Source of the DNA: Ruegeria lacuscaerulensis
Lineage (GTDB): Bacteria; Pseudomonadota; Alphaproteobacteria; Rhodobacterales; Rhodobacteraceae
Assembly: GCF_013031245.1 (NCBI RefSeq)
Contig: NZ_WPZL01000020.1
Location: 1-64,000 of the forward strand
DNA length: 64,000 nucleotides
Reading direction: 5' to 3'
This document shows positions 7,164 to 23,509 of this stretch, in pieces. The first letter of the stretch is position 1. Every line of letters starts with the position of its first letter. The notes beneath the pieces are model-generated. The model searched no databases. It worked only from the letters and a program-made list of their open reading frames with translations, and was not told the origin of the DNA. A program made the translations under genes and the position numbers.

Positions 7164-7855
7164 CCGTTCTCCAACAGTTCCGTCAACGGGCGCAGCCTAG
7201 TATTCGAGCCGTCCCGGATCAGCATTCCAAACCTCTCATCCGTGCCCAGAAACACACCCGTTTCCTCGTATGCCTCACCCACGCCGCGCAGCAGCCCCAT
7301 CCATTCGCTATGCAAAGGAGCGTTGCCGTCCTCCTGCCATCGATTAAGCCAGGTCAGCATGTGCCGTGACCAGCTTTCGACAAGTTGAACCGGTGAGACC
7401 TCGGCACAGCCTTCGTCGTAAAGCGCTGTGATTTCGGGATTTTCACCCGGTGCGTCGCTTGTTTGAAGCAGCGCCAGTTCCCAACCGACGACCAGCCAGT
7501 CAGGTTCTTCATCCGGAGATGCAGTGGAAGCCGCGACGCGAAACATCCCGCATTTCGCACCGTTCACACAGATCAGCCCATCCCAGCCCAGATGCACGGC
7601 AACCTCGGGTGGAGCCAGCGCGCCCAGCGCGTTCTGGAACCCAACGGCGCAAAGCGGCAGCATGGCCATTGCGTCCTGTAGCGGCACTTCGGGCGCGAAG
7701 ACGATGGCCACTCGCAGGCGATCCGCCTGATTGTTGTAGACCACCGACCCGGAATCACAGCCCAGAGCGGCCATAGCCTGAGCGCGCTCGAACGGGTCTT
7801 CCCCACCCTGAACCGGCTGGCCAGTCAGCAAGGGGGGGAAGACCGGCTGGCTCAT
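7160..7855 (-). CDS. Biotin/lipoate protein ligase-like protein with DUF4444 domain
   Basis: A 231-residue protein of the biotin/lipoate A/B ligase-like group with a C-terminal DUF4444 region. The core between residues 35 and 130 shows the ligase-like order (early glycine-serine segment, QNALGAL, then a GWDGLICVNGAKCG section where the catalytic lysine of true ligases would sit). It overlaps mrp by four bases upstream and the DUF6505-like gene by four bases downstream, so the three form one tightly coupled unit. Canonical lipoate-ligase signature residues are weak, so a changed substrate is possible. Confidence 0.78.
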   Translation of the reverse strand: MSQPVFPPLLTGQPVQGGEDPFERAQAMAALGCDSGSVVYNNQADRLRVAIVFAPEVPLQDAMAMLPLCAVGFQNALGALAPPEVAVHLGWDGLICVNGAKCGMFRVAASTASPDEEPDWLVVGWELALLQTSDAPGENPEITALYDEGCAEVSPVQLVESWSRHMLTWLNRWQEDGNAPLHSEWMGLLRGVGEAYEETGVFLGTDERFGMLIRDGSNTRLRPLTELLENG

Positions 7856-8913
7856 GCGTAGCCCTTGGCGATCATGTCGCGGGCAATCTTGCGGAATGCC
7901 TCGGCTTGCGCACTGTCGGGTTTGCTGACCACGATGGGCGCGCCACCGTCCGCCGCCACACGAATGTCCAGATGCAACGGGATTTCACCCAACAGCGGAA
8001 CGCCCAGCGCCTCGGCCTCGGACGTAACACCACCATGACCAAAGACATGCTCCTCATGCCCGCAGTTGGAACAGATATGGGTGGACATGTTCTCGATCAT
8101 TCCGACGATCGGCGTTTTGAGCTGATTAAACATATCGATCCCTTTGCGGGCGTCGATCAAAGCCACGTCCTGTGGGGTCGAAACAACAATTGCCCCGTCC
8201 ACCTTGAACTTCTGGCTCAGCGTCAGTTGCACGTCGCCGGTGCCGGGCGGCAGGTCGACGATCAGTACGTCCAGTACGCCCCATTGCACCTGACTCATCA
8301 TCTGTTGCAGCGCGCCCATCAGCATCGGGCCGCGCCAGACAACCGCCTGCCCTTCGTTGGTCATCAGACCCATCGACATCATGGTGACGCCGTGATTGCG
8401 CAGCGGCAGGATCGTCTTGCCGTCAGGGCTGGCCGGGCGACCCGACACTCCCAGCATCCGGGGCTGCGATGGGCCATAGACGTCAGCGTCCAGCAGGCCC
8501 ACGCGACGGCCTTCGGCTGCCAGCGCACAGGCGAGGTTGGCGGAAACGGTGGATTTGCCAACGCCGCCTTTACCGGAAGCGACCGCTATAATCCGATCTA
8601 CGCCCGGCACTGCTTGCGGGCCGGTTTGCGAGGGTTTCGGTTTGGGCTTCAGATCCGGCGGAGCCTTGTCGGAATGCGCAGTCAACATGGCCGAAACCTT
8701 TGCGACTCCGTCAACCAACTGGGCTGCCTGCTCAGCTGCGGCGCGCACCGGTTCCATGCGCTGGGCCTGTTTCGGGTCAATCTCAAGCACAAATCGGACC
8801 GTATCGCCCTCGACGTTTAGTGCGCGGACGACACCTGCACTGACAATATCCTGGCCGGATACGGGGTCGGTGATCTTTTTCAGGTTCGCAAGTACCGCAT
8901 CACGAACACTCAT
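7852..8913 (-). CDS. mrp: Mrp/NBP35 family Fe-S cluster carrier ATPase (ApbC)
   Basis: A 353-residue P-loop NTPase. An N-terminal MIP18/DUF59-type region (1-75) is followed by a proline-lysine linker and the deviant Walker A GKGGVGKST at residues 114-122. A CSNC motif near residue 280 can bind a shared 4Fe-4S cluster at the dimer interface. Family members hold and transfer Fe-S clusters to apo-proteins. AGGAG lies eight bases before the ATG. The linked formate dehydrogenase island is rich in Fe-S proteins and could be a client, but Mrp is general housekeeping. Confidence 0.93.
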   Translation of the reverse strand: MSVRDAVLANLKKITDPVSGQDIVSAGVVRALNVEGDTVRFVLEIDPKQAQRMEPVRAAAEQAAQLVDGVAKVSAMLTAHSDKAPPDLKPKPKPSQTGPQAVPGVDRIIAVASGKGGVGKSTVSANLACALAAEGRRVGLLDADVYGPSQPRMLGVSGRPASPDGKTILPLRNHGVTMMSMGLMTNEGQAVVWRGPMLMGALQQMMSQVQWGVLDVLIVDLPPGTGDVQLTLSQKFKVDGAIVVSTPQDVALIDARKGIDMFNQLKTPIVGMIENMSTHICSNCGHEEHVFGHGGVTSEAEALGVPLLGEIPLHLDIRVAADGGAPIVVSKPDSAQAEAFRKIARDMIAKGYA

Positions 8914-9045: not shown

Positions 9046-9774
9046 ATGCGCTTTGCCCTTTTGTGCCTGAGCCTGACGCTCTCTGCCAGTCCCTCTTGGT
9101 CGCAGGAGGCAATTGGCCTCGCCGCTCCGGCAGAGGTTACAGACTCTGGTCTGCTGCAACATATTCTTCCACGCTTCTCTCTCAAGACCGGGATACGCGT
9201 TATTGCAGACAAAGGAGGCGTTCTGGTCCTTGAAGTCGAGCCGCCGGGTGATCCGGTGTTTGTCCGCGATGGTGTGATCTATCACCTGCGGATTGAGGAT
9301 AATGCAAGGCATGAACGGTTCCGCGACTGGCTGCTGTCGGATATCGGCAAGCGCACCGTCGAAAGCTATGCCCCCGATCAGGGCGAGCCCTTTTCGGCCA
9401 GTTTCGAAGTCACCGCCACTCTAGAGGAAACAGTGATCGACGGTGACACAGCCCGTGGCGAGGAACTGTCGATGACTCATTGTGGAAGGTGTCACGTGAT
9501 CGGCCCGCAGAACCGTATGAACGGACTGGGTTCGACGCCCTCTTTCGCCGTGCTGCGCGCCATGCCTGACTGGTCCGAACGGTTCGAGGCTTTCTTTGCT
9601 CTCAACCCCCATCCCGCGTTCACACAGATTGAGGGTATAACCCCTCCATTCGACCCGCAGCGCCCGTCCCCCATTTATCCTGTCGAAATGACGCAGGAGG
9701 AGCTTGAGGCAATTCTGGCTTTTGTCTCTGCGATCAGCGCCGCCGATCTAGGCGCGCCGCTGCAACTTCAGTGA
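9046..9774 (+). CDS. Exported fusion: shortened TupA-like domain plus cytochrome c
   Basis: A 242-residue protein. A signal peptide (about 1-20) starts at ATG 9046; the 40 residues that a farther upstream start would add look untranslated. Residues 34-50 (SGLLQHILPRFSLKTGI) match TupA residues 38-54 encoded at 21185-22000 in 11 of 17 positions, and residues 68-116 match the TupA C-terminus (GDP, RFxxWL, SY, DxGEPF). About 150 central TupA residues are missing. Residues 130-235 form a class I cytochrome c domain with CGRCH at 146-150 and a probable Met215 ligand in YPVEM. It is probably a periplasmic haem protein acting with the adjacent formate dehydrogenase. It ends seven bases inside the convergent ferredoxin gene. 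Confidence 0.8.
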   Translation: MRFALLCLSLTLSASPSWSQEAIGLAAPAEVTDSGLLQHILPRFSLKTGIRVIADKGGVLVLEVEPPGDPVFVRDGVIYHLRIEDNARHERFRDWLLSDIGKRTVESYAPDQGEPFSASFEVTATLEETVIDGDTARGEELSMTHCGRCHVIGPQNRMNGLGSTPSFAVLRAMPDWSERFEAFFALNPHPAFTQIEGITPPFDPQRPSPIYPVEMTQEELEAILAFVSAISAADLGAPLQLQ

Positions 9775-11720
9775 TCCTTTCTTTTTGAAAAATAGTCCTC
9801 GGTCGTGATGACCTTGGGTTTCGGGTTCGACTGGAACGGGTTGTCCTGCTGCTGGAACTGCGCGTTCACCCGGCAATTGTCACACATCTGGATCATCCGG
9901 GCCTTTTCCGACGTGGCAAACATCGGGTGCGTACCTGACAGCTTTTCCATGATCCGTTCGACTGTGGACTTCACACCAAACAAGGCACCGCATTCGACGC
10001 AGGCAAAGGGTTCTTCCTCATTCAGCACCTGCTGCGACAAGGCCACGGCACTGAGATCAAGCTGCGGCACAAGGGCGATGGCATCCTCTGGACAGATTCC
10101 TTTGCACAATCCACATTGCAGGCATGCGTCTTGCTGAAAGTTCAACTGTGGCTTGTCGGGATTATCAACCAATGCCCCGGACGGACATAGCGACACACAG
10201 CTTAGACACAACGTGCAGGCCTCCGTATTCACCTCAACCGCCCCATAAGGTGCGTTCTCAGGCAACGGCAGCGGAGCCTCAGCTTCCGGATTCAGTGCCT
10301 GTGCTGACAAGCGCGCGATTTGCCTCCGGTTGCCTAGTGGCAGGACCGGGTCGGCCAAAGGTGCGGGTATCTCTTGCGCGTAAAGAAGGTCGGACATGGC
10401 ATCCGGGTCGGCCTCATCTATCAGACCCAGCCCATCGGAGCCCGCAATCGCCTGCGCGAGGACCAGCTCTCGTTCCAGTGCGTCGCGTTCTGTCGTTGGT
10501 GCCAGGAGGATATCAACCCGTGCAAACCCATGCGCCAGCGCCGCCAGCATCTCGGCATGTCCAAATCCAGAAATCACGCCCAGTTCCATCGGGATGACAT
10601 CGGCGGGCAGGCCACGTCCAAACCGTGCGGAAAGCCGGATCATCTCATCCCCATGGGCATCGTGGACCAACAACCTTGGCGCTGAGCCTCCCGCCCGCCT
10701 GTAGGTACGCGCCAGAATATGCATCCGCGACAGCAGCGCCGACACAGGTGGGTCTTCATAGGTAATCGCGGTCGACGGGCACACGGCTGCGCATTCTCCG
10801 CACCCGGCGCAGATCATCGGATCAATGGACACGTGTTCCCCTGCCGAAGTGATCGCGCCTGTCGGGCAGATATCCAGACAATTTGTGCAGGCGACTTGTT
10901 CCGCGCGGGAATGGGCGCAGAGCGTTTCTTCCATCCGAACGTAGAGGGGTTTTTCGAAGGTTCCAACCAACTGCACCGCTTCGAACGCCAGACGTTCTAC
11001 AGCCACAATATCCTTAGGGTCGGCGCGCAAGTACCCTTCGCGCTTGGCGGGGGCCTGCACAAAGGGCGTACCGCCTGTCAGGTCGAGAACGATGTCACAA
11101 GACGACTTTGCCCCATCTCGCGGCTCAGTCCACCCGAACGTTCCCCGGCCACCGGGTTCAAGCTGCTGCAAGGCATCCAGCCTTAACGAGAATCCTCCCA
11201 ATGCTCCATTCAGCGAACGAATCCGTCCGCGCACCACGTCAAAGGCGCGAGAGTTGGGCTCGGTATCGTCGGTCACCAGAACCGTCACTGCCAGCGTGTT
11301 CGCCAAACGGTCAGCCACATCAAAGGTGACATTTCCTGGTCCTATTATGAAGCACGTGCCTTCGCTGAAGACATCAACACTGGGTGTGATAGGCCGTGGC
11401 AACAACGCTTCGGCAACTAAAGCAGCCATCTTGGGCGCGGCATCGTTGCTCTGTTCGGACCAACCGGCGCGGTCGCGAAGGTCCACGAAACCCGGAGTGT
11501 CGATACTCAACTCGTCCGCGAGAGCCTGAAAAACGTTCCTCTCCTGCCCACAGGCGATCACGGTGTCGCCTTCCTGCATCAAGGATGCAGCAGCTTCCAA
11601 CTCACCCGTGCAAAGTGCGGTGTGAACTCTGGAACACGCGGTTCCGCAAGCGGACGCGATTATTTCGGCATCCAGTTCCTGTGTCCCCGCGCAGTTGCAG
11701 AGTAAGAGTTTTGTGCCCAT
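9768..11720 (-). CDS. Multi-cluster 4Fe-4S protein of the formate dehydrogenase locus
   Basis: A 650-residue cytoplasmic iron-sulfur protein. Cysteine motifs include a CTNCLDICP/CAGCGECAAVCP pair near residues 278-315, a CTLCLSCVSLCP/CLQCGLCKGICP pair near 495-545, and further CVECG and CDNC pairs towards the C-terminus. The N-terminus (LLLCNCAGTQ) and the middle resemble HdrA/ferredoxin-type proteins that occur beside DUF3305/DUF3306 and fdh genes. GAGGAGG lies three bases before the ATG. It is divergent from the fdh operon and shares its upstream region at 11721-11976. A role in electron delivery or in Mo/W-enzyme maturation fits the context. Confidence 0.85.
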   Translation of the reverse strand: MGTKLLLCNCAGTQELDAEIIASACGTACSRVHTALCTGELEAAASLMQEGDTVIACGQERNVFQALADELSIDTPGFVDLRDRAGWSEQSNDAAPKMAALVAEALLPRPITPSVDVFSEGTCFIIGPGNVTFDVADRLANTLAVTVLVTDDTEPNSRAFDVVRGRIRSLNGALGGFSLRLDALQQLEPGGRGTFGWTEPRDGAKSSCDIVLDLTGGTPFVQAPAKREGYLRADPKDIVAVERLAFEAVQLVGTFEKPLYVRMEETLCAHSRAEQVACTNCLDICPTGAITSAGEHVSIDPMICAGCGECAAVCPSTAITYEDPPVSALLSRMHILARTYRRAGGSAPRLLVHDAHGDEMIRLSARFGRGLPADVIPMELGVISGFGHAEMLAALAHGFARVDILLAPTTERDALERELVLAQAIAGSDGLGLIDEADPDAMSDLLYAQEIPAPLADPVLPLGNRRQIARLSAQALNPEAEAPLPLPENAPYGAVEVNTEACTLCLSCVSLCPSGALVDNPDKPQLNFQQDACLQCGLCKGICPEDAIALVPQLDLSAVALSQQVLNEEEPFACVECGALFGVKSTVERIMEKLSGTHPMFATSEKARMIQMCDNCRVNAQFQQQDNPFQSNPKPKVITTEDYFSKRKDH

Positions 11721-11903: not shown

Positions 11904-11933
11904 TTGGCACATGGCCAAATTGTGTACCATAGT
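11904..11933 (+). promoter_or_regulatory. Possible sigma-70 promoter of the fdh operon
   Basis: TTGGCA at 11904-11909 and CATAGT at 11928-11933 are 18 bases apart, a fair match to -35 and -10 elements. Transcription would begin near 11940, which places the ATG at 11911 upstream of the transcript and supports the GTG start at 11977. Match to consensus is moderate only. Confidence 0.4.
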
Positions 11934-11976
11934 AGACTTCAAGGAAGGCAGGGGAGAGCCTTTCGGGGAGGACTAC

Positions 11977-12531
11977 GTGGCCAAGGCCGCCAATCAGATT
12001 GAAATGTCAATCGGCGTTGTCGTGCGCAAAACACCCGGTGTCACCCGCTGGGCGAAATGGAACTGGCGCGCCGTCGCGGTGCTGCCGGGCGCCGGTCCGG
12101 CGGACTGGCAGGAAATGCGCCGAGAGGGTGAGGCCGTTGAGTACCACGCCGCCACCCTGCCCCTGACGCTTTGGTCAGATGAGAGCGAAGCTTACATGGT
12201 CAACCTGTCCGACGGGCAGCCCTCGATCTACCTTGTGTTGCGGAATGAGCTGGATGGCGCGCGGCCAATGGATGCAGTTCTGGTGACGGCATCGCCGTTC
12301 GAAGGGCAGGACTATGCGGATACCGGCGAAGAGATTGTCGAAAAGATTCCAATGACCGAAGGGCTGATTGCCTGGGTTCGGGACTTTGCACTGGAGCATC
12401 ACCGTGAAGAGGTCTTTGTAAAACGCCGCCGCGACAAAAAGCGGACGGATCTTGTCGAAGACGGCAAAGGGGATGCACGTATCCGTCAGGCTTCGGATGT
12501 TTACCGCGCGCCGCGGAGGATCGTGCAGTGA
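11977..12531 (+). CDS. DUF3305 protein of the formate dehydrogenase operon
   Basis: A 184-residue protein of the DUF3305 family. The hallmark GVVVRKTPGVTRWAKWNWRAV follows about ten residues from the start. I choose GTG 11977 because GGGGAGGA at 11965-11972 is five bases before it, while ATG 11911 lies in a likely promoter; ATG 12004 is another option. DUF3305 and DUF3306 proteins are found almost only in fdh loci and are thought to assist maturation or assembly; no activity is established. The stop overlaps the next gene as GTGA, so the two are coupled. Confidence 0.85.
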   Translation: MAKAANQIEMSIGVVVRKTPGVTRWAKWNWRAVAVLPGAGPADWQEMRREGEAVEYHAATLPLTLWSDESEAYMVNLSDGQPSIYLVLRNELDGARPMDAVLVTASPFEGQDYADTGEEIVEKIPMTEGLIAWVRDFALEHHREEVFVKRRRDKKRTDLVEDGKGDARIRQASDVYRAPRRIVQ

Positions 12532-13094
12532 CCGAATTCCGCGACTTCTGGTCCCGCCGCAAGGCCGCCGTTCAGGCCGAAGCTGAGGCCGAGGTAATCG
12601 CTGTCGAGGAACAGGCCGTTGCCGAACAGCGTGCCGAGTTGGAAGAAAAGTCGGATGCCGAGATTCTGGCCGAGTTCAACCTGCCCGATCCCGATCAGTT
12701 GCGAGCTGGTGACGATGTCTCTGGTTTCATGGCCAAGGCAGTGCCCGACCGGCTGCGCCGCCGTGCCTTGCGGCGCTTATGGCGACTGAACCCGGTTTTG
12801 GCCAATGTGGATGGGCTGGTCGACTACGGCGAGGACTATACCGACGCGAATTGTGTTATCGAAAACATCCCGACCGCGTATCAGGTAGGCAAAGGAATGC
12901 TGGCCCATGTCGAAGCATTGGCCGCTGACCAAGAAGAACCTGAAAAAAATTCGGAACCCGAAACTCCGGAACCTGAAGTGGAACCGGAGGTGAGGGAAGA
13001 ACCGGCGCCGGTACAGATTGCTGAGGTTGAAGAGCCGGAAGAAGAAGACAGCCCCCCTACCCCACGACGCATGAAATTCGAGTTTGAAGGATGA
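12528..13094 (+). CDS. DUF3306 protein of the formate dehydrogenase operon
   Basis: A 188-residue protein of the DUF3306 family with the RDFWSRRKAAV start typical of the family. A charged helical N-terminal half with FMAKAVPDRLRRRALRRLWR (about residues 66-85) is followed by a highly acidic Glu/Pro tail. It starts at GTG 12528 with GCGGAGGA at 12513-12520, overlapping the DUF3305 stop. The predicted role is an accessory for formate dehydrogenase; the mechanism is unknown. The acidic, low-complexity tail from about residue 125 suggests a flexible docking region. Confidence 0.85.
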   Translation: MTEFRDFWSRRKAAVQAEAEAEVIAVEEQAVAEQRAELEEKSDAEILAEFNLPDPDQLRAGDDVSGFMAKAVPDRLRRRALRRLWRLNPVLANVDGLVDYGEDYTDANCVIENIPTAYQVGKGMLAHVEALAADQEEPEKNSEPETPEPEVEPEVREEPAPVQIAEVEEPEEEDSPPTPRRMKFEFEG

Positions 13095-13098
13095 CCCA

Positions 13099-13710
13099 AT
13101 GACCGCACGCAATGCGCAATATCTTGATGTCTCGGCCGAGGATCGTCTGCGCGCGGATTTCTACAATTTTCTCGGACTGCTGTTGGCGGCCCCACCGAAT
13201 CAGATGCTGCTGGATCAGGTCGCAGGTCTGACGGGTGACGATACAGATCTGGGTCAGGCAATGCAGACCATGGCACGCGTAGCCAAAGTCACCAAACCCG
13301 CAGCAGCGGAACGGGAATTCAACGCGCTGTTTATCGGGCTGGGGCGTGGTGAATTACTACCCTATGCCAGCTATTATCTGACCGGGTTCCTTAACGAAAA
13401 ACCTTTGGCACAGTTGCGTAACGACATGGCCGTGCGCGGGATCACCCGGGCACAGAATGTGTTCGAACCCGAAGACAACATTGCATCGCTGATGGAGATG
13501 ATGGCGGGCATGATCGTAGGCCGCTTTGGCACCCCCGCGGAGCTGGAGGACCAAAAGGCGTTCTGGAACAAACATATCGGCCCCTGGGCCACACATTTTT
13601 ATTCGGATTTGGAAGCTGCAGAAAACTCGGTTCTCTATGCCTCGATCGGCACCGCCGGTCGGATTTTCATGGAGATCGAGCGGGAGGCGTTCCGAATGAC
13701 GGCAGTGTGA
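13099..13710 (+). CDS. TorD/DmsD-family maturation chaperone for formate dehydrogenase
   Basis: A 203-residue all-helical cytoplasmic chaperone of the TorD/DmsD family. Visible family features are the N-terminal RADFYNFLGLLLAAPP stretch, the EREFNALFIGLGRGELLPYASYYLTGF core and the EPEDNIASLMEMMAGMI motif (E-P-D-H/N-I). Such proteins bind Tat signal peptides of molybdo- or tungstoenzymes until the cofactor is inserted. ATG 13099 lies just after the DUF3306 stop with GAAGGA at 13086-13091; a TTG at 13084 is less likely. The client is probably FdhA encoded at 14066, which has a Tat signal. Confidence 0.88.
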   Translation: MTARNAQYLDVSAEDRLRADFYNFLGLLLAAPPNQMLLDQVAGLTGDDTDLGQAMQTMARVAKVTKPAAAEREFNALFIGLGRGELLPYASYYLTGFLNEKPLAQLRNDMAVRGITRAQNVFEPEDNIASLMEMMAGMIVGRFGTPAELEDQKAFWNKHIGPWATHFYSDLEAAENSVLYASIGTAGRIFMEIEREAFRMTAV

Positions 13711-14065: not shown

Positions 14066-16960
14066 ATGCTTAGGAAAAAGACCAACGGGGTTGCGAGACG
14101 CCCCCAGCGGACAAGTATCCTGTCCCGGATTGGCGAGAAAACCGTCGATCGCCGCGCATTCCTGCGTGGCTCGGGCCTGACGATCGGCGGATTGGCCGCG
14201 ATCAGCGCCACAGGTGGAACCGTGACGCCCGCCAGCGCCCAGACAGCGGCGAACGCCGCCGTTGAAAACATCAAATCCGTATGCACCCATTGTTCGGTCG
14301 GCTGTACTGTCGTTGCCGAAGTTCAGAACGGCGTCTGGATCGGGCAGGAACCCGGCTGGGATAGCCCGTTCAACCTGGGTGCACACTGTGCCAAGGGTGC
14401 CTCGGTCCGCGAGCACGCCCATGGTGAACGCCGCCTCAAGTATCCGATGAAAAAGGAAGGTGGCGAGTGGAAGCGCATCAGCTGGGAAGAGGCGATCAAC
14501 GAGATCGGCGACGGCATGATGAGCATCCGCGAGGAATCAGGGCCGGACAGCGTGTACTGGCTGGGCTCGGCCAAACATAACAACGAACAGGCCTACCTGT
14601 TCCGCAAGTTCGCCGCCTACTGGGGCACGAACAACGTGGACCATCAGGCCCGTATCTGTCACTCGACCACGGTTGCGGGTGTTGCGAATACTTGGGGCTA
14701 CGGCGCCATGACCAATTCGTACAACGACATCCACAACTCGCGGGCCATCTTCATCATCGGCGGCAACCCGGCCGAGGCGCACCCCGTCTCGCTGCTGCAC
14801 GTTCTGCGCGCGAAAGAGCAGAACAACGCCCCGCTGATCGTTTGCGATCCGCGCTTTACGCGCACCGCAGCCCATGCCGATGAATATGTCCGCTTCCGTC
14901 CCGGTACGGACGTGGCACTGATCTGGGGTATCCTGTGGCACATCTTCGACAACGGCTGGGAGGACAAAGAGTTCATCCGCACCCGTGTCTGGGGCATGGA
15001 CCAGATCCGTGACGAGGTTCGCAAGTGGAACCCCAATGAGGTCGAACGGGTGACCGGCACCCCCAGCAGCCAACTGCGCCGCGTGGCGCGCACCATGGCC
15101 AACAACCGTCCCGGCACGGTGATCTGGTGCATGGGCGGCACACAGCACACCAATGGCAACAACAACACCCGCGCCTACTGCGTGCTTCAGCTTGCACTTG
15201 GCAACATGGGCACCTCGGGTGGTGGCACCAACATCTTCCGCGGCCATGACAACGTGCAGGGCGCGACGGACCTCGGCGTTCTGTCCCACACCCTGCCCGG
15301 CTATTATGGGCTGTCCAATGGAGCTTGGGCGCATTGGAGCCGCGTCTGGGGTGAAGATGTCGATTGGTTGAAAGGTCAGTTCGCCACGATCAAGGACAAG
15401 GAAGGCAAAGACAAGCCGCTGATGAATGAACGCGGCATCCCTGTTTCCCGCTGGATCGACGGCGTTCTGGAAGACCCGGCCAACATGGATCAGGACAACA
15501 ATGTCCGCGCCATGGTTCTGTGGGGTCACGCGCCGAACTCGCAAACACGCGGGCCGGAAATGAAGACGGCGATGGAAAAGCTGGACATGCTGGTCGTAGT
15601 CGACCCGTATCCCACCGTTTCTGCCGTTCTGCATGACCGCACCGATGGCGTCTATCTGTTACCGGCATGTACGCAGTTCGAAACCCGTGGCTCAGTCACG
15701 GCCTCGAACCGCTCGCTGCAGTGGCGTGACAAGGTGGTTGATCCGCTGTTCGAAAGCCTGCCGGACGAGGTCATCATGGCCAAGTTCGCCAACAAGTTCG
15801 GCTGGGCGGACAGGCTTTTCCGCAATATCGAGATGGAAGACCCGGAAACCCCGAATGTTGAAAGCATCACGCGTGAGTTCAACAGTGGCCTCTGGACCAT
15901 CGGCTATACCGGTCAGTCGCCGGAACGTCTCAAAAATCATATGGCCAACCAGCACACGTTCGACAGAACCACGCTGCAAGCCATTGGCGGACCAAACGAC
16001 GGCGAATACTACGGCCTGCCCTGGCCTTGCTGGGGAACGGCAGAGATGGGTCATACGGGGACACCGAACCTCTATGACATGTCCAAGCCGGTGGCCGAAG
16101 GCGGCCTGACCTTCCGCGCCCGTTTTGGTGTGGAACGCGATGGTGACAACCTGCTGGCCGAAGGGGTATATAGCGTTGGGTCGGAAATTCAGGATGGCTA
16201 TCCCGAATTTACGATGCAGATGCTGATGGACCTTGGCTGGGATGGCGACCTCACGGCTGAGGAACGCGCGGCTATCGACGCCGTCGCGGGACCAGAGACC
16301 AACTGGAAAACCGACCTTTCGGGCGGTATCCAGCGGGTCGCGATCGAGCATGGCTGTGCGCCCTTCGGGAACGCCAAAGCCCGCGCGGTTGTCTGGACAT
16401 TCCCGGATCCGATCCCACTGCACCGCGAGCCGCTTTATACCCCGCGCCGCGATCTGGTGGCGGACTATCCGACCTACGAGGATCGTCAGGCCTATCGTCT
16501 GCCCACCCTATACGCTTCGATCCAAAAAAACGACTTTTCAAAGGATTACCCGATAATCCTCACGTCAGGTCGATTGGTCGAATATGAAGGCGGCGGCGAA
16601 GAAAGCAGGTCGAACCCGTGGCTCGCCGAGCTTCAGCAGGACATGTTCGTCGAGATCAATCCGCGCGATGCCAACAACCTTGGTATTCGCGACGGATCTC
16701 AGGTTTGGGTCGAAGGGCCCGAGGGCGGAAAGGTCAAGGTGATGGCGATGCTGACCAACAGGGTTGGTGCTGGCGTGGCCTTCATGCCATTCCACTTTGG
16801 CGGCCATTTCCAGGGTGAAGACCTTCGGCATAAATACCCCGCAGGCGCCGATCCATATGTGTTGGGCGAAAGTTCCAACACCGCTCAGACCTATGGCTAT
16901 GACTCAGTGACCCAGATGCAGGAGACCAAGTGTACTCTCTGCAAAATCTCGGCAGCGTAA
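14066..16960 (+). CDS. fdhA: Formate dehydrogenase catalytic subunit alpha (Mo/W-bis-MGD)
   Basis: A 964-residue molybdopterin oxidoreductase. A long N-terminal region carries the Tat motif RRAFLRG with arginines 29-30. A CTHCSVGC motif marks the N-terminal 4Fe-4S cluster. The active-site ARICHS segment gives Cys198 and His199, so the metal ligand is Cys and not selenocysteine. AMTNS and HDNVQGATD motifs are conserved in formate dehydrogenases, and the C-terminal MGD domain is complete. GGAGG precedes the ATG. It should oxidise formate in the periplasm, passing electrons to FdhB and FdhC. The nearby tungstate transporter suggests tungsten as the metal; the sequence alone cannot prove it. Confidence 0.95.
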   Translation: MLRKKTNGVARRPQRTSILSRIGEKTVDRRAFLRGSGLTIGGLAAISATGGTVTPASAQTAANAAVENIKSVCTHCSVGCTVVAEVQNGVWIGQEPGWDSPFNLGAHCAKGASVREHAHGERRLKYPMKKEGGEWKRISWEEAINEIGDGMMSIREESGPDSVYWLGSAKHNNEQAYLFRKFAAYWGTNNVDHQARICHSTTVAGVANTWGYGAMTNSYNDIHNSRAIFIIGGNPAEAHPVSLLHVLRAKEQNNAPLIVCDPRFTRTAAHADEYVRFRPGTDVALIWGILWHIFDNGWEDKEFIRTRVWGMDQIRDEVRKWNPNEVERVTGTPSSQLRRVARTMANNRPGTVIWCMGGTQHTNGNNNTRAYCVLQLALGNMGTSGGGTNIFRGHDNVQGATDLGVLSHTLPGYYGLSNGAWAHWSRVWGEDVDWLKGQFATIKDKEGKDKPLMNERGIPVSRWIDGVLEDPANMDQDNNVRAMVLWGHAPNSQTRGPEMKTAMEKLDMLVVVDPYPTVSAVLHDRTDGVYLLPACTQFETRGSVTASNRSLQWRDKVVDPLFESLPDEVIMAKFANKFGWADRLFRNIEMEDPETPNVESITREFNSGLWTIGYTGQSPERLKNHMANQHTFDRTTLQAIGGPNDGEYYGLPWPCWGTAEMGHTGTPNLYDMSKPVAEGGLTFRARFGVERDGDNLLAEGVYSVGSEIQDGYPEFTMQMLMDLGWDGDLTAEERAAIDAVAGPETNWKTDLSGGIQRVAIEHGCAPFGNAKARAVVWTFPDPIPLHREPLYTPRRDLVADYPTYEDRQAYRLPTLYASIQKNDFSKDYPIILTSGRLVEYEGGGEESRSNPWLAELQQDMFVEINPRDANNLGIRDGSQVWVEGPEGGKVKVMAMLTNRVGAGVAFMPFHFGGHFQGEDLRHKYPAGADPYVLGESSNTAQTYGYDSVTQMQETKCTLCKISAA

Positions 16961-16972
16961 GGAGGACGATTA

Positions 16973-17566
16973 ATGGCTAGAGCAAAGTTTCTCTGCGACG
17001 CTGAACGCTGCATTGAGTGCAACGCCTGCGTCACCGCGTGCAAGAACGAGCACGAGGTCCCTTGGGGCATCAACCGCCGCAGGGTGGTGACGATCAATGA
17101 CGGCAACCCGGGCGAACGCTCGATCTCGGTGGCCTGCATGCACTGCTCAGACGCGCCCTGTATGGCGGTATGCCCGGTCGACTGCTTCTATCAAAACGAA
17201 GAAGGCGTCGTCCTGCACTCCAAGGACCTGTGCATTGGCTGCGGCTATTGCTTCTACGCGTGCCCCTTCGGTGCGCCGCAATACCCGCAGGCAGGCAACT
17301 TCGGATCGCGCGGCAAGATGGACAAATGCACCTTCTGCGCCGGCGGCCCCGAAGAGAACCACTCGACCGCAGAGTTCGCCAAATACGGTCGCAACCGGAT
17401 CGCCGAAGGCAAACTGCCCATCTGCGCCGAAATGTGTTCCACCAAGGCCCTGCTCGCCGGTGACGGCGATGTGGTCTCGGCCATCTACCGTGAACGCGTC
17501 GTGGCACGCGGGTTTGGCTCAGGCGCCTGGGGTTGGGGCACGGCCTACGACCAGAAAGACGGCTAG
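16973..17566 (+). CDS. fdhB: Formate dehydrogenase iron-sulfur subunit beta
   Basis: A 197-residue ferredoxin-type subunit with four cysteine groups: [11 protein letters not shown] (about 14-24), [14 protein letters not shown] (about 53-66), [12 protein letters not shown] (about 85-96) and CTFC with CAEMC near 119-157. This matches the four-cluster electron-transfer subunits of membrane-bound formate dehydrogenases. AAGGAGG lies seven bases before the ATG, and the gap to fdhA is 12 bases. It relays electrons from the catalytic subunit to the cytochrome b subunit. No signal peptide is visible, as expected for export in complex with FdhA. Confidence 0.94.
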
Positions 17567-17589
17567 CAAACCGTCTTCATGAACCAAAC

Positions 17590-17615
17590 AGACGACCCGC
17601 TTTCGCGGGTCGTCT
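17590..17615 (+). repeat. Stable stem-loop between fdhB and fdhC
   Basis: An 11-pair perfect inverted repeat, AGACGACCCGC and GCGGGTCGTCT around a TTTC loop, lies between fdhB and fdhC. No T-run follows, so it is not a standard terminator. It could stabilise the upstream message or mark RNA processing, allowing different amounts of FdhAB and FdhC. The spacing to the fdhC start is 25 bases. Confidence 0.75.
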
Positions 17616-17640
17616 GAACAGGGATTTGACCGAGGTTCAG

Positions 17641-18843
17641 ATGTTCCGTTTATTCATCGCATTTCTGTTCGCAATTGGTGTCGCGCAAGTCGCCATCGCA
17701 CAAACAACGGATAACGGCTCTGCCGCGCCGGAACGCGCTGAGACCGGCGGCGCGACGACTCTCGAAGACATTCTCGCCCGACAGAGGGGAGAGAAGGTTG
17801 ATAACAGCTATCGCTCGGAAAACACCGGCCAAAGCAACGCCGAAGGGCTGCTGGGCCAATTGGGAACACGCGGTGTGGCGTCTGACAGCGACGTTTATCG
17901 CGCGTTGCGATACGGGTCGGCAGATGTGACCGTTTCGTCCAAGGGGCCTGCTGCAAGCGTCCTCATTCAAGACAGCGGCATGTGGTGGCTGAACTTCCGC
18001 ACAGGTCCCTTGCGCGAGTACGGCACGTATATTCTGGGCGGGATGCTTGTTGTCCTGCTGCTGTTCTTCCTGATCCGCGGAAAGACCAGGATTGACGGCG
18101 AAAAGACAGGTCGCACGGTCACCCGCTTCAACGGCTTCGAACGCTTCGGCCACTGGCTGTTCGCCGGATCCTTTCTGATTCTCGGACTGACAGGTCTGCT
18201 GACGCTCTATGGCCGCGACTTCCTGATTCCAATCTTCGGAAAGGAGGGGTTTGCGACCATCGCCCAAGGTTGCAAATGGCTGCACAACAATCTGGCCTGG
18301 GCTTTCATGCTGGGCCTGATCATCGTTACCGTGAACTGGATCACCCATAACATCCCCAACCGAACCGATCTGAAATGGCTCGTTGCCGGGGGCGGGCTGT
18401 TCACCAAAAACAGCCACCCGCCAGCCAAAAAATTCAACGCGGGCCAAAAGATCATCTTCTGGCTCTGCATTTTGTTGGGCGTTTCGATCAGCCTGTCCGG
18501 TCTGTCGCTGCTGTTCCCGTTTGAAATGCCACTGTTCGCCAAGACGTTCTCAATCGCGAATTCGACCGGCATTCCGCAAATGCTTGGCCTGAACCTGCCG
18601 GTGCAAATGTCCCCGCAGGAAGAAATGCAATACGCGCAGGTCTGGCACGTGATGGTCGCTTATGTGTTTATCGCAATCATCCTGGCCCATATTTATCTGG
18701 GCTCTGTCGGCATGGAAGGCGCCTTTGACGCCATGGGAAGCGGTGAAGTCGAAGAGCAGTGGGCGCGCGAGCATCACTCGCTGTGGCTTGAAGAAGTACA
18801 GGGAAAAGAGGCCGAAAAAGCAACAGCCTCACCTGCTGAATAG
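17641..18843 (+). CDS. fdhC: Formate dehydrogenase cytochrome b subunit gamma
   Basis: A 400-residue membrane subunit. A signal peptide-like start (about 1-20), a soluble periplasmic section with Gln/Arg/Gly-rich sequence (about 20-130), then a transmembrane region of five hydrophobic segments. His-bearing segments (ERFGHWLFAGSF, CKWLHNNLAWAF, VWHVMVAYVF) supply haem b ligands as in the FdhI/FdnI family. GAGG lies five bases before ATG 17641; an upstream in-frame start at 17533 overlaps fdhB and is rejected. It transfers electrons from FdhAB to the quinone pool. The stop adjoins the next start (TAGATG). Confidence 0.92.
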   Translation: MFRLFIAFLFAIGVAQVAIAQTTDNGSAAPERAETGGATTLEDILARQRGEKVDNSYRSENTGQSNAEGLLGQLGTRGVASDSDVYRALRYGSADVTVSSKGPAASVLIQDSGMWWLNFRTGPLREYGTYILGGMLVVLLLFFLIRGKTRIDGEKTGRTVTRFNGFERFGHWLFAGSFLILGLTGLLTLYGRDFLIPIFGKEGFATIAQGCKWLHNNLAWAFMLGLIIVTVNWITHNIPNRTDLKWLVAGGGLFTKNSHPPAKKFNAGQKIIFWLCILLGVSISLSGLSLLFPFEMPLFAKTFSIANSTGIPQMLGLNLPVQMSPQEEMQYAQVWHVMVAYVFIAIILAHIYLGSVGMEGAFDAMGSGEVEEQWAREHHSLWLEEVQGKEAEKATASPAE

Positions 18844-20106
18844 ATGCGCGGGCTGGCTTTTGCTCTGGTCCTGATCCCCCTCCCCGCCCTGGCCGAGTTC
18901 TTTACGCTCAAAGGCCACGGCGGGCCGATCATGGGGATCGCCACGGCGCCGGACGGGCGGATCGCCACAGCCAGCTTCGACAATTCCGTCGGCCTGTGGT
19001 CCGACCAGAAACCGCAATGGCTTGAAGGGCATGAGGCCGCCGTCAACAGCGTCGCGTTCAATGGCACAGCGATCTATTCCGCCGGTGATGATTTCACCTT
19101 GCGCCGTTGGCCGGGTGGTGAAATCGTTGGACGGCACAAGGGCAAGATCGTCGATATCGCGGCTTCCAAGACTCATGTCGCCACGGCCAGTTGGGACGGC
19201 ACGATTGGACTCTGGCCGGAAGACGGTTCAGAACCCAAGGTGCTTGGCCCCACGGGCAGCGGTGTGAACGCGGTGGTGTTCTCACTAGACGGAAAGGAAC
19301 TCTATTCCGCCGGGATCGATGGCGTGCTGCGCCTCTGGGACGTGGCCAGAGGTCAGGAGAAATTGCGCCTGATCGAACACGGGTTTGGCATCAACGAGTT
19401 GGTTCTGAACGCGCAGGACAACTGGATCGCCTACGGCACAGTTGACGGTGTCACCCGCATTCGCGACCTCTCCACGGGGGAAGAACACGATTTTACCCTC
19501 GACCGTCGACCGATCCTTGCGCTGGCGCTCAGCCCGGATCGCAGCATGCTGGCAGTCGGCGATGGTGAAGGCTACATCATGGTGATCGATACGCAGAATT
19601 GGCACGTCGCGCATGACTTCCGTGCGACCTTGCGTGGCCCGGTCTGGGCGCTAGCATTTTCCACAGATGGCCAGAACATCCACGCTGGGGGTATCGACGA
19701 GGCCATGTACAGCTGGCCCATATCTGCCTTGCATGACCCCGAACAGATGGCCGCAGCGGAGCCTAGCTTCCTGAAAAACCCAGAAGAAATGAGCAACGGA
19801 GAGCGCCAATTCGCCCGCAAATGCTCGATCTGTCACAGCCTTACACCTGACGGGAAACGGCGCGCAGGTCCAACCCTGTACGGAGTGTTTGGGCGCAAAG
19901 CAGGAACATTGCCTGGATATTTCTACTCGGACACGCTGCAAGACTCTGATATCATTTGGAATGATGAGACGATAAATGCTCTTTTCGACGAAGGCCCGGA
20001 CCACTACATTCCGGGGACAAAGATGCCAATGCAGCGGATCACGCAGGCCCGGGACCGTGACGACCTGATCACCTTCCTGCGCCGCGCCACGATACCGGAA
20101 AACTGA
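18844..20106 (+). CDS. WD40-repeat protein with C-terminal cytochrome c domain
   Basis: A 420-residue exported protein. A signal peptide (about 1-18) leads into about seven WD40 blades (about 20-300), seen as repeated GHGGPIMGIA, AVNSVAF, LRLWD and ILALALSPD patterns. The last 110 residues are a class I cytochrome c with CSICH at 327-331 and a GTKMPM loop for the Met axial ligand. The ATG directly follows the fdhC stop. A beta-propeller fused to cytochrome c could dock on the formate dehydrogenase and accept or route electrons in the periplasm. The fusion occurs in related fdh loci as far as I recall; its biochemical role is not established. Confidence 0.88.
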   Translation: MRGLAFALVLIPLPALAEFFTLKGHGGPIMGIATAPDGRIATASFDNSVGLWSDQKPQWLEGHEAAVNSVAFNGTAIYSAGDDFTLRRWPGGEIVGRHKGKIVDIAASKTHVATASWDGTIGLWPEDGSEPKVLGPTGSGVNAVVFSLDGKELYSAGIDGVLRLWDVARGQEKLRLIEHGFGINELVLNAQDNWIAYGTVDGVTRIRDLSTGEEHDFTLDRRPILALALSPDRSMLAVGDGEGYIMVIDTQNWHVAHDFRATLRGPVWALAFSTDGQNIHAGGIDEAMYSWPISALHDPEQMAAAEPSFLKNPEEMSNGERQFARKCSICHSLTPDGKRRAGPTLYGVFGRKAGTLPGYFYSDTLQDSDIIWNDETINALFDEGPDHYIPGTKMPMQRITQARDRDDLITFLRRATIPEN

Positions 20107-20245: not shown

Positions 20246-21118
20246 ATGTCCGAATTCCTGACCACCAAAGAGCTGGCCGACCTGCTGCGCATTGGCGAGC
20301 GGAAGGCCTATGACCTGGCCTCCTCGGGCGAGGTGCCCTGCGTGCGTGCCATGGGCAAACTGCTGTTTCCGCGGGCCGAGGTCATCGCCTGGCTCAATGA
20401 TTCTCGCTCTGGCCCACATGTCGCCGAACCGCCTCTGCCCCCGATCGTGGCGGGCAGCCACGATCCGCTGCTGGACTGGGCGCTACGTGAAAGCGGGTCG
20501 GGTCTGGCGACTTATTACGATGGCTCGTTTGACGGGCTGAAGCGGTTCAAAGATCGCAGTGCGCAGGCCGCCGCGCTGCATATCCACGAAGACAAGGGTT
20601 TTAACGTCCAGACCCTTCGCGACACTTTAGGCGAAGCCCCAGTTGTTCTCTATGAAATCGCGCAAAGGCAGCGTGGACTTTTGTTGGCACCCGGGACCTC
20701 CGGAATTACCGGCTTTGCAGACCTGAAAGGGCGGCGGGTTATCCTGCGCCAGGACAGTGCCGCCAGCCAACGGCTATTCGACACTCAACTCGAGGCCCAT
20801 GGTCTGACGCGCAACGATCTGGACGCCCTGCCCGCCTGTGCCCGTACCGAAGAAGAGCTGGCCATCTCTCTGCATGACAGCAAAGCCGAAGCAGGGTTCG
20901 GACTGGGCGCTCTGGCCGGGCTTTACAATTTGGGTTTTGCCCCGACCCATTCCGAGCGGCTGGATCTGGCCATATGGCGGCGTGCCTATTTCGATGATCC
21001 GATGCTCAAACTGCTCGGTTTCCTGCAATCCGGGCGCTTTACCACCCGCGCCGCTGAGTTTGGCGGCTATGATCTGTCCGGTCTTGGTACCATCCACTAT
21101 AACGGTGCCAGCGGCTAA
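20246..21118 (+). CDS. HTH plus periplasmic-binding-protein-like regulator
   Basis: A 290-residue cytoplasmic protein. An N-terminal excisionase-type helix-turn-helix (LTTKELADLLRIGERKAYDLA, about 4-24, with a wing to residue 50) is fused to a PBP-like domain (about 70-285) of the kind found in one-component molybdate/tungstate regulators. The ATG follows the TGA of the 41-residue gene without gap, so it is coupled to the fdh operon. Likely role: control of fdh or tup genes in response to an oxyanion or related ligand. Ligand identity is inferred from domain type and location. Confidence 0.85.
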   Translation: MSEFLTTKELADLLRIGERKAYDLASSGEVPCVRAMGKLLFPRAEVIAWLNDSRSGPHVAEPPLPPIVAGSHDPLLDWALRESGSGLATYYDGSFDGLKRFKDRSAQAAALHIHEDKGFNVQTLRDTLGEAPVVLYEIAQRQRGLLLAPGTSGITGFADLKGRRVILRQDSAASQRLFDTQLEAHGLTRNDLDALPACARTEEELAISLHDSKAEAGFGLGALAGLYNLGFAPTHSERLDLAIWRRAYFDDPMLKLLGFLQSGRFTTRAAEFGGYDLSGLGTIHYNGASG

Positions 21119-21134
21119 CTTTGGCCCGAAACCC

Positions 21135-21184
21135 CTTCATCTTTTCAAAAATACTCTCGCCGAAGGCATTGGCCGCAGGCCAAT
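21135..21184. repeat. Intergenic Roseobacter-type 3'-end motif with hairpin
   Basis: Between the convergent regulator and tupA lie CTTCATCTTTTC, AAAAATACTC and CGCCGAAGGC, followed by a perfect ATTGGCC-GCA-GGCCAAT hairpin (21168-21184). From memory, a close motif (CTTCATCTTTCCAAAAATACTC with CGCCGGAGGC) is repeated at many gene ends in Rhodobacteraceae. Only this copy is seen here. On the minus strand it reads as a hairpin followed at a distance by TATTTTTG, so it may end the tup transcript. Confidence 0.5.
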
Positions 21185-22000
21185 TCAATCCGCGTTCGGA
21201 AAAAAAAGCTGCTCGCCATCCAGTTTGTAGGACGCAATTGCGGCCTGTCCGTCCGGTCCGGTCAGCCATTCGATGAATCGCTGGCCAGCAGCCGCCCGCA
21301 CGCGTGGATGTTTAGCCGGGTTCACAAGGATCACCCCATACTGATTGTACAAGCGCGGATCTCCCTCAACCAGAACCTCAAGGTTTCCCTTGTTGCCAAA
21401 GGACTGCCACGTCCCCCGATCCGTCAGTGCATAAGCCTCCATCCCACTGGCTACATTCAGCGTCGCCCCCATGCCCGAGCCGGTTTCACGATACCACTTG
21501 CCCGACGCATCGGTTGGATCAACACCCGATGCATCCCAGTGCCGCATCTCGGCCTTGTGCGTTCCGCTGTCATCCCCGCGCGAAGCAAAAGGGGCTTCGG
21601 CCTCGGACACAGCCGTCAGGGCGGCCACGATGTCCATTTCGCCTTTCACATTGGCCGGATCCGATTTCGGCCCGACAAGGATGAAATCGTTGTACATAAC
21701 GTCCAACCGCTCGACGCCCCAACCATCGGCGACGAACTGTTCCTCGGCGGGTTTGGCGTGAACCAGCAGCACATCACCATCGCCATTGATCGCGTTCCGG
21801 ATCGCCTGCCCGGTGCCCACAGCAACCACACGTACGTCGATCCCGGTTTCGGCTTCAAATCCCGGAAGTATGTAATCCAACAGGCCCGAATTCTGAGTCG
21901 ACGTCGTGGATTGCACAACGATAAAAGGTGATTCAGCAGATAAAGGACCCGCAAAAAAGCCAAGTGAAACCAATGCTGCCCGAATGAAATTCCGGATCAT
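21185..22000 (-). CDS. tupA: Tungstate ABC transporter substrate-binding protein
   Basis: A 271-residue periplasmic binding protein with a signal peptide (about 1-22). The STTSTQNSGLL region near residues 31-41 carries the TTTS-type oxyanion-binding motif of TupA proteins, and the GDDSGTH segment is also conserved. GGAGA lies six bases before the ATG. It captures tungstate in the periplasm for TupBC encoded just upstream. Linked to the formate dehydrogenase operon on the other strand, it points to a tungsten cofactor. Molybdate or another oxyanion is less likely but possible. Confidence 0.9.
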   Translation of the reverse strand: MIRNFIRAALVSLGFFAGPLSAESPFIVVQSTTSTQNSGLLDYILPGFEAETGIDVRVVAVGTGQAIRNAINGDGDVLLVHAKPAEEQFVADGWGVERLDVMYNDFILVGPKSDPANVKGEMDIVAALTAVSEAEAPFASRGDDSGTHKAEMRHWDASGVDPTDASGKWYRETGSGMGATLNVASGMEAYALTDRGTWQSFGNKGNLEVLVEGDPRLYNQYGVILVNPAKHPRVRAAAGQRFIEWLTGPDGQAAIASYKLDGEQLFFPNAD

Positions 22001-22020
22001 TCAGATCTCCATTCTTATTA

Positions 22021-22755
22021 TTATGTTACCAGTCCACCCGCCAGATAGCGGCGCGAAGCTTCGTTTTCGGGGGCTTCCAGTACCTGCATAGCGGCCCCAT
22101 GTTCCACCACCTGGCCACCCTGCATCATGACGATATCGGCGGCCAACCGCCGGGCCTGACCGATGTCATGTGTCACCATGACAATCCGCACGCCCCGGGT
22201 TGAAGCACGTAGGATCATTCGCTCGATAATCTGCGTTGCACTGGGGTCCAATGCGCTGGTCGGTTCGTCCAGAAACAATGTCTCCGGGTTCAGCGCCAAA
22301 GCGCGAAGAATGGCCAGCCGCTGCGCCTCACCACCTGATAGAGACCGTGCCGATTGCCGGGCTTTGCCTTCCAGACCGCCTTCGGACAGAAGTTCCTCGA
22401 TCCGTGTCCGGCGAGCACTTCGGTGAACGCCTTGCCGTTTGAGTACAAAGTCCAGATTGGCCGCAACCGACCGGCGCAGCAATACGGGCTGCTGAAACAC
22501 CATCGCCTGCCGCGCCTTGTGGTCGGCATTCAGGATCGCGCTGCCCTGCCTGACCAGACCCCTGTCTGGCACGATCAGGCCGTGCAGACAGCGCAGAAGC
22601 ATGCTCTTGCCCGAACCATTTGGTCCCAGGATCAGGGTCGGGCCCGGCCCGTCCAAACACAGATGCGATACATCCAACAGCAACTTGCCGTTGCGCGAAA
22701 TCTGAATTCCGTCAACCGACAGACAACTCGCCATGTCTGGAACCAGATCACGCAT
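22021..22755 (-). CDS. tupC: Tungstate ABC transporter ATP-binding protein
   Basis: A 244-residue ABC ATPase. Walker A is GPNGSGKS (about 43-50), the signature LSGGEAQR, Walker B LFLDEPTSAL, and the H-loop MVTHD are all intact. It overlaps the permease gene by eight bases and is 20 bases from tupA. It powers tungstate import with TupB and TupA. The C-terminus lacks an extra regulatory TOBE domain. A later in-frame ATG eight residues in is an alternative start. Confidence 0.9.
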   Translation of the reverse strand: MRDLVPDMASCLSVDGIQISRNGKLLLDVSHLCLDGPGPTLILGPNGSGKSMLLRCLHGLIVPDRGLVRQGSAILNADHKARQAMVFQQPVLLRRSVAANLDFVLKRQGVHRSARRTRIEELLSEGGLEGKARQSARSLSGGEAQRLAILRALALNPETLFLDEPTSALDPSATQIIERMILRASTRGVRIVMVTHDIGQARRLAADIVMMQGGQVVEHGAAMQVLEAPENEASRRYLAGGLVT

Positions 22756-23461: not shown

Positions 23462-23509
23462 ATTCTTCCAAACACCCAATAATTCGTAGGAAATGCGCTC
23501 ATTTTCAAA

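What the first reader, a model, noticed from the sequence alone, without database searches (positions are those of the whole stretch)
9046..9774. Cytochrome c fused to a shrunken tungstate-binding-protein domain
The exported protein carries both ends of a TupA domain (SGLLxxILPxFxxxTGI matching in 11 of 17 positions, and the RFxxWL...SY...GE end) but lacks about 150 central residues that close the binding cleft. It is then joined to a CGRCH cytochrome c domain. The full tupA gene lies about 11 kb away in the same island. A lobe fragment joined to haem could dock on the tungstoenzyme, sense oxyanion-loaded TupA, or be a relic reused as a scaffold. I know of no described system with this build.
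Basis: partly seen in the sequence, partly recalled or inferred. Interest (0 to 1): 0.75.

Follow-up and report, generated by a model that had tools for sequence, protein, structure and literature searches.

The report
Cytochrome wearing one tungstate-receptor lobe
A predicted heme protein of marine bacteria is fused to most of one lobe of a two-lobed tungstate-catching protein; related genes show the same fusion at several stages of apparent stripping-down, and the leftover lobe likely no longer binds tungstate but instead would hold the heme next to a formate-oxidising enzyme that probably uses tungsten.

The parts
9046..9774 (+). Whole gene: 242-aa cytochrome c with an N-terminal remnant of TupA
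   Evidence: ORF and translation; full-length relatives in 53 of 54 same-genus genomes, own included
9046..9102 (+). Signal-peptide-like start, residues 1-19
   Evidence: Read from the sequence; helix 2-13 in the model; no signal-peptide program was run
9103..9408 (+). TupA lobe A remnant, residues 20-121
9169..9186 (+). PRFSLK motif, residues 42-47; R43 and K47 invariant in the fusion family
   Evidence: R and K in 90 of 90 rows of A2 and 58 of 58 rows of A5; in stand-alone TupA, R in 3 of 50 and K in 16 of 50
9328..9330 (+). Invariant Trp95 in the C-end part of the TupA remnant
   Evidence: 90 of 90 and 58 of 58
9409..9444 (+). Linker, residues 122-133
   Evidence: Mean pLDDT 69 for residues 121-130; dN/dS 0.435 for residues 121-133
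9445..9771 (+). c-type cytochrome domain, residues 134-242
   Evidence: PF00034 23.0 bits, cut-off 21.3
9481..9495 (+). CGRCH heme-attachment motif, residues 146-150
   Evidence: Sequence; both Cys and the His invariant in 90 of 90
9610..9612 (+). His189, invariant, the only invariant candidate distal ligand; the Met of relatives, three residues on, is Phe192
7852..8913 (-). Mrp/ApbC-type P-loop protein, upstream neighbour
   Evidence: Pfam; beside the gene in 80 of 80 named loci
9768..11720 (-). 650-aa polyferredoxin, convergent neighbour, ends overlap by 7 bases
   Evidence: Pfam; beside the gene in 79 of 80 named loci
11911..13710 (+). DUF3305, DUF3306 and TorD-like chaperone genes of the FDH operon
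   Evidence: DUF3305/DUF3306 beside fdhGHI operons is described in PMC4464133 (passages)
14066..18843 (+). fdhA, fdhB, fdhC: formate dehydrogenase, predicted exported
   Evidence: fdhA: NCBIfam TIGR01591 480.8 bits, below its cut-off of 666; fdhB and fdhC named from position and recall; synteny
18844..20106 (+). WD40-propeller cytochrome c, the second interaction-type domain plus cytochrome of the island
   Evidence: Pfam; in 57 of 74 fusion genomes and 8 of 21 FdhA genomes without fusion
20246..23479 (.). tupR-like regulator (+) and tupA, tupC, tupB tungstate importer (-)
   Evidence: Pfam, and NCBIfam NF041772 217.7 bits for tupA, below its cut-off of 400; tupR, tupC and tupB named from position and recall

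Best explanation
The gene encodes a protein with a signal-peptide-like start, a domain that matches lobe A of the tungstate-binding protein TupA, and a c-type cytochrome domain, and it is predicted to be a periplasmic accessory redox partner of the neighbouring, probably tungsten-dependent, formate dehydrogenase, with the TupA lobe likely serving as its docking arm. Shown by calls: homology of both ends to TupA, the single-lobe model, loss of lobe B and of the tungstate-site residues, the usual slot between mrp and the polyferredoxin, co-occurrence with FdhA, purifying selection on the remnant, and relatives at several stages of reduction. Inferred: a tupA copy fused to a stand-alone FDH-linked cytochrome; lobe B and the anion site were lost (forms with the whole of lobe A survive); then helix 2, strand 3 and helix 3 were lost. 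Inferred and untested: the remnant binds no tungstate; its fixed basic pair (R43, K47) contacts FdhABC or the protein's own cytochrome domain; the heme, without the usual distal Met, is His-ligated (His189) or five-coordinate and takes electrons from formate oxidation.
Against: 21 of 95 FdhA genomes lack the fusion; of 19 such loci fetched none has a hit to it, and in 9 mrp and the polyferredoxin are simply adjacent with a 59-391 bp gap, so it is dispensable for FDH. A close cytochrome without the lobe sits in the same slot (L188), so the lobe is dispensable for the cytochrome. Co-occurrence and synteny do not show contact, and the genomes are related, so the tests overstate the evidence. No partner of R43/K47 is known, and the arrangement of the two domains is uncertain (pTM 0.59). 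His189 is conserved also in Met-bearing relatives, so it may be structural. The full-length form is one metagenome protein; no second one is among the listed rows of 390 order genomes, where at most 4 candidates a genome were scored. Tungsten in this FDH is inferred only from TupA being present in 95 of 95 FdhA genomes.
Confidence: 0.55

Rival explanations
1. A fading relic: the lobe is a passenger of an old fusion, kept only because it folds and follows the signal peptide, and the cytochrome alone does the work.
For: Graded loss of the domain across relatives; a lobe-free cytochrome in the same slot, grouped with the short forms in the tree (L188); dN/dS higher in the remnant than in the cytochrome, 0.130 against 0.042.
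Against: dN/dS 0.130 is well below the linker's 0.435; R43, K47 and Trp95 are invariant in 90 of 90 and 58 of 58, R43 and K47 more fixed than in TupA itself; the model of the remnant is confident, pLDDT 95-98.
Confidence: 0.2
2. A dock on the tungstate importer: the lobe mimics TupA on TupB, and heme redox state gates tungstate uptake.
For: Descent from TupA; TupA present in 74 of 74 fusion genomes, within 20 kb in 42 of 74; the likeness of the two TupA lobes is suggested to help TupA meet its dimeric membrane partner (PMC5517513, passages).
Against: 0 of 43 genomes with TupA but without this FdhA have the fusion; G039 kept tupRABC and lost the fusion together with FdhA; R43 and K47 are not general TupA features.
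Confidence: 0.1
3. A heme sensor: a heme without distal Met, possibly five-coordinate, binds a small ligand and reports to FDH through the lobe.
For: No conserved Met in the family, while 6 of 6 parsed relatives outside it keep it.
Against: No signalling partner recognised in the island; His189 could fill the site; cytochromes with other ligation can carry electrons (recalled).
Confidence: 0.1
4. A sequencing or assembly deletion in an ordinary TupA gene.
For: None found.
Against: 53 of 54 same-genus genomes and 74 of 198 family genomes hold such a form; the window also has an intact tupA.
Confidence: 0.01

Closest known systems
TupA, tungstate-binding protein of TupABC (Desulfovibrio alaskensis, PDB 5my5)
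   Same: Lobe A fold, collinear sequence match at both ends, inferred descent
   Different: No lobe B, no TTTS motif, no equivalents of His59, Arg118, Thr124 and Asp170, fused to a cytochrome
Class I cytochrome c (PF00034)
   Same: CXXCH; Pfam score above cut-off
   Different: Distal Met replaced by Phe or Leu in most, about 15-18 residues more between that site and the last helix, extra N-terminal lobe
Stand-alone cytochrome of alphaproteobacterial FDH loci (L037, L182, L183, L185, L188, L193)
   Same: Same cytochrome family and kind of locus, same lack of Met
   Different: No TupA lobe
WD40-cytochrome c of the same island (18844-20106)
   Same: Interaction-type N-terminal domain joined to a C-terminal cytochrome c, found only in genomes with this FdhA in the survey
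   Different: Propeller instead of a TupA lobe; keeps a Met-containing segment near its C-end

Membership tests
TupA tungstate-binding proteins | Sequence and fold relation to TupA | tested here: met
   for lobe A only
TupA tungstate-binding proteins | Two lobes around a cleft | tested here: not met
   Lobe B absent in sequence and model
TupA tungstate-binding proteins | TTTS-type motif in lobe A | tested here: not met
   AAPAE in the window protein; 5 of 358 parsed proteins, P0316 among them, have 3 or more Ser/Thr at the five positions examined
TupA tungstate-binding proteins | Arg118 and Thr124 (SRGDxSGTH segment) and Asp170 | tested here: not met
   The segment is in 1 of 360 proteins, P0316; site residues from PMC5517513 (passages); their placing on these sequences is mine
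TupA tungstate-binding proteins | Binds tungstate | not testable with these tools
   Needs the purified protein
Class I cytochrome c | CXXCH heme attachment | tested here: met
   90 of 90
Class I cytochrome c | Pfam PF00034 at its cut-off | tested here: met
   23.0 against 21.3 bits; at E up to 1, 81 of 90 members match
Class I cytochrome c | Conserved distal Met | tested here: not met
   Any Met at residues 183-222 in 34 of 90; position 215 is Met in 29 of 90, else Leu, Ile, Val or Phe
Gene set of a tungsten formate dehydrogenase | Genomic tie to fdhA and tupA | tested here: met
   74 of 74 with FdhA (two as fragments), 74 of 74 with TupA
Gene set of a tungsten formate dehydrogenase | The enzyme contains tungsten | not testable with these tools
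   Inferred from TupA in 95 of 95 FdhA genomes

The most novel reading that the evidence does not exclude
A substrate-binding protein was welded to a cytochrome and then stripped, step by step and with the steps still living in related bacteria, from a two-lobed tungstate receptor to a one-lobed docking arm that holds a methionine-free heme at a tungsten formate dehydrogenase: a receptor lobe turned into the handle of a redox partner.
Probability: 0.45. Interest if true: 0.78.

Novelty: new variant of a known kind. Interest (0 to 1): 0.62.

Why it matters
It gives related genes in one kind of locus with one-lobe, reduced-lobe and lobe-free forms, and one full-length form from a metagenome, so the question how a ligand-binding domain is turned into a binding-free interaction module becomes directly testable. 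It also points to an unrecognised redox partner, annotated as hypothetical protein or c-type cytochrome and the like, of a formate dehydrogenase found in about half of the genomes of the family surveyed (93 of 198 at the first threshold) and likely to use tungsten. The missing distal Met makes the heme itself worth measuring.

Tried and rejected
Sequencing deletion: rejected by the surveys. Single-sequence Pfam and NCBIfam scans gave no binding-protein hit for the N-part, and 1 of 90 members hits PF13531 on its own, weakly, E 0.14; profile methods were needed. PDB phmmer with the single sequence gave weak hits, mostly cytochromes. Foldseek alone was weak (no match at E 0.001; best 3muq 0.016, 5my5 0.081); the second-look aligner on Foldseek's own list gave the clear result. 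hhalign of the N-domain as a whole against TupA reports only its first 42 columns (score 62.7; best of 50 shuffles 24.4; reversed TupA and five other proteins of the window 10.9-14.7), so the two ends were then tested apart. Further full-length TupA-cytochrome fusions in 390 order genomes: none among the listed rows. The first count had two fusion genomes without FdhA (G112, G250); a looser search found fragments in both, and the 43 TupA genomes without FdhA or fusion were then given the same looser search: five have relatives of 60-66% identity, the rest 38% or less or none. Of the 21 FdhA genomes without fusion, G184 and G214 were not fetched; of the 19 fetched, 9 have mrp and the polyferredoxin adjacent, the others are cut by contig ends or arranged otherwise; two of the 21 (G057, G146) have a stand-alone cytochrome elsewhere. 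His189 as a certain heme ligand: not claimed, since Met-bearing relatives have the same His (of 11 fetched, 4 could not be parsed, 1 was family-like and without Met, 6 have Met). The tree of 61 cytochrome domains rests on 111 columns with 9 starred inner branches of 58; it shows 7 of 10 stand-alone rows apart (90/87) and 25 of 30 short-form rows in one group with L188 (93/94), neither starred, so the direction of change is likely, not proved. The spacing counts come from the best 120 rows of three searches, not from a fair sample. dN/dS uses my own Nei-Gojobori code, medians over pairs, with high dS and saturated pairs left out. The stand-alone TupA set was partly found with P0316 and holds many close relatives; 1 of 51 could not be parsed. 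My tally of tupA inside the 80 named loci (2 of 80) was set aside, because those loci end before the usual tupA place; those 80 are the best of 466 relatives. Papers: the nine searches listed no paper whose title or abstract start speaks of a TupA or binding-protein lobe fused to a cytochrome (two listed nothing); passages were seen of PMC4464133, PMC5517513 and PMC13197769. The library is open-access only.

Full report
What is there. The ORF at 9046-9774 (+) encodes 242 residues: a signal-peptide-like start (1-19), a domain at 20-121, a short linker and a cytochrome c domain at 134-242 with CGRCH at 146-150. It lies between an Mrp/ApbC gene and a 650-aa polyferredoxin gene, both on the other strand, at the head of an island with DUF3305, DUF3306, a TorD-like chaperone, fdhA, fdhB, fdhC, a WD40-cytochrome c, a regulator and tupA with its importer genes. 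The genome is probably a Ruegeria, judged from same-genus genomes whose hit coordinates agree with named records of that genus.

Stand-alone cytochromes. In 385 genomes of the class, 10 had a match to the cytochrome part alone at E up to 1e-11; 7 of these 10 have other genes of the FDH island in the stretch fetched (L037, L182, L183, L184, L185, L188, L193; fdhA itself in all but L184), 3 do not (L186, L187, L194). L188 is in exactly the same slot between mrp and the polyferredoxin. Two more stand-alone forms in the own family (L034, L189) show no FDH-island gene in the stretch fetched. The cytochrome tree puts 7 of 10 stand-alone rows apart and the other 3, L188 included, on the side of the fusions, which suggests a gain of TupA, stepwise reduction, and later loss in L188; the tree is short of columns and these forks are not strongly supported.

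Tie to FDH. In 198 genomes of the family (197 genera), 74 have the fusion. FdhA at 75% identity or more is in 93 genomes, TupA in 138. Of the 74, 72 have FdhA and the remaining two show fragments of it at 80% (5.1 kb from the fusion, on the same contig) and 84%, which makes 95 FdhA genomes; all 74, and all 95, have TupA; FdhA is within 12 kb of the fusion in 70 and TupA within 20 kb in 42. Of 43 TupA genomes without this FdhA none has the fusion. The same looser search on those 43 found relatives of 60-66% identity in five and nothing above 38% in the rest. Against an essential role, 21 FdhA genomes lack the fusion; of 19 such loci fetched, 9 have mrp and the polyferredoxin side by side. In the same genus 53 of 54 genomes have the fusion; the exception, G039, lacks this FdhA (best match 36%), keeps tupRABC, and shows only short stretches resembling the fusion and the WD40-cytochrome between them and mrp. 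In 80 named loci, the best of 466, mrp is in place in 80, the polyferredoxin in 79 and fdhA in 77, the three misses being loci cut by a contig end.

Constraint. Among 30 same-genus genes dN/dS is 0.130 in the TupA remnant, 0.435 in the linker and 0.042 in the cytochrome. R43, K47 and W95 are invariant in 90 of 90 and in 58 of 58 sequences. Of 51 stand-alone TupA, 50 could be parsed; R is found at that place in 3 and K in 16. So the remnant is not drifting freely and has gained fixed features that TupA does not need.

The heme. No Met is conserved at a ligand-like place after CXXCH; His189 is invariant in 90 of 90 and in 16 of 16 of a second set with stand-alone forms. In 6 parsed relatives outside the family the segment reads PH-x-x-M or close to it, while here it is mostly PH-x-x-F or L, with some 15-18 more residues before the last helix. 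The distal ligand is therefore likely His189 or none; sequence cannot decide.

How it would work. The common theme of the island is an interaction-type domain joined to a cytochrome, twice: a WD40 propeller and a TupA lobe. The WD40-cytochrome is present in 57 of 74 fusion genomes and 8 of 21 others with FdhA (Fisher p 0.0013, genomes taken as independent, which they are not). I take the protein to be an accessory carrier or relay for electrons from formate, placed by its lobe. The alternatives are a passenger domain, a dock on TupB and a heme sensor; they are given with their tests.

What is known. DUF3305 and DUF3306 beside fdhGHI operons are in print (PMC4464133, passages). A tungsten cofactor pathway for another FDH, MeFDH1, is described in Methylorubrum extorquens (PMC13197769, passages; that it is a cytoplasmic enzyme of another type is recalled). 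My searches listed no account of the fusion itself (calls under Tried and rejected). Where sources name members, the names I saw are hypothetical protein, c-type cytochrome, cytochrome c domain-containing protein and the like.

Noticed in passing
9610-9623: The cytochrome family of this FDH locus, with or without the TupA lobe, lacks the distal Met of its relatives.
   Followed up: partly
18844-20106: A WD40 propeller fused to a cytochrome c follows fdhC and co-occurs with the TupA-lobe cytochrome (57 of 74 against 8 of 21).
   Followed up: partly
9046-9102: Synonymous divergence in the signal-peptide codons is low (median dS 0.147 against 0.64-1.40 in the other parts of the gene), as if an overlapping signal or regulatory element constrained it.
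   Followed up: no
L038:11700-12280: In a same-genus genome without this FdhA the island seems excised between the WD40-cytochrome end and the start of the fusion gene, with tupRABC left in place.
   Followed up: partly
L033:12640-15000: In 25 of 74 fusion genomes a tupA lies within 6 kb of the fusion, in L033 beyond mrp and of a more distant type (51% to the window's TupA), instead of beyond fdhC.
   Followed up: no
9768-11720: A 650-aa protein with several 4Fe-4S motifs, no NCBIfam name at cut-off among the best 25 shown, is the convergent neighbour in 79 of 80 named loci; its role is open.
   Followed up: no
NZ_CP126148.1, NZ_CP021914.1, NZ_CP155732.1, NZ_CP019316.1, NZ_CP081121.1: A relative covering 89-91% of the protein is also carried on five plasmid records of Sagittula, Tateyamaria and Sulfitobacter.
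   Followed up: no
L034, L189: Two genomes of the family carry a stand-alone form of the cytochrome with no FDH-island gene in the stretch fetched.
   Followed up: no
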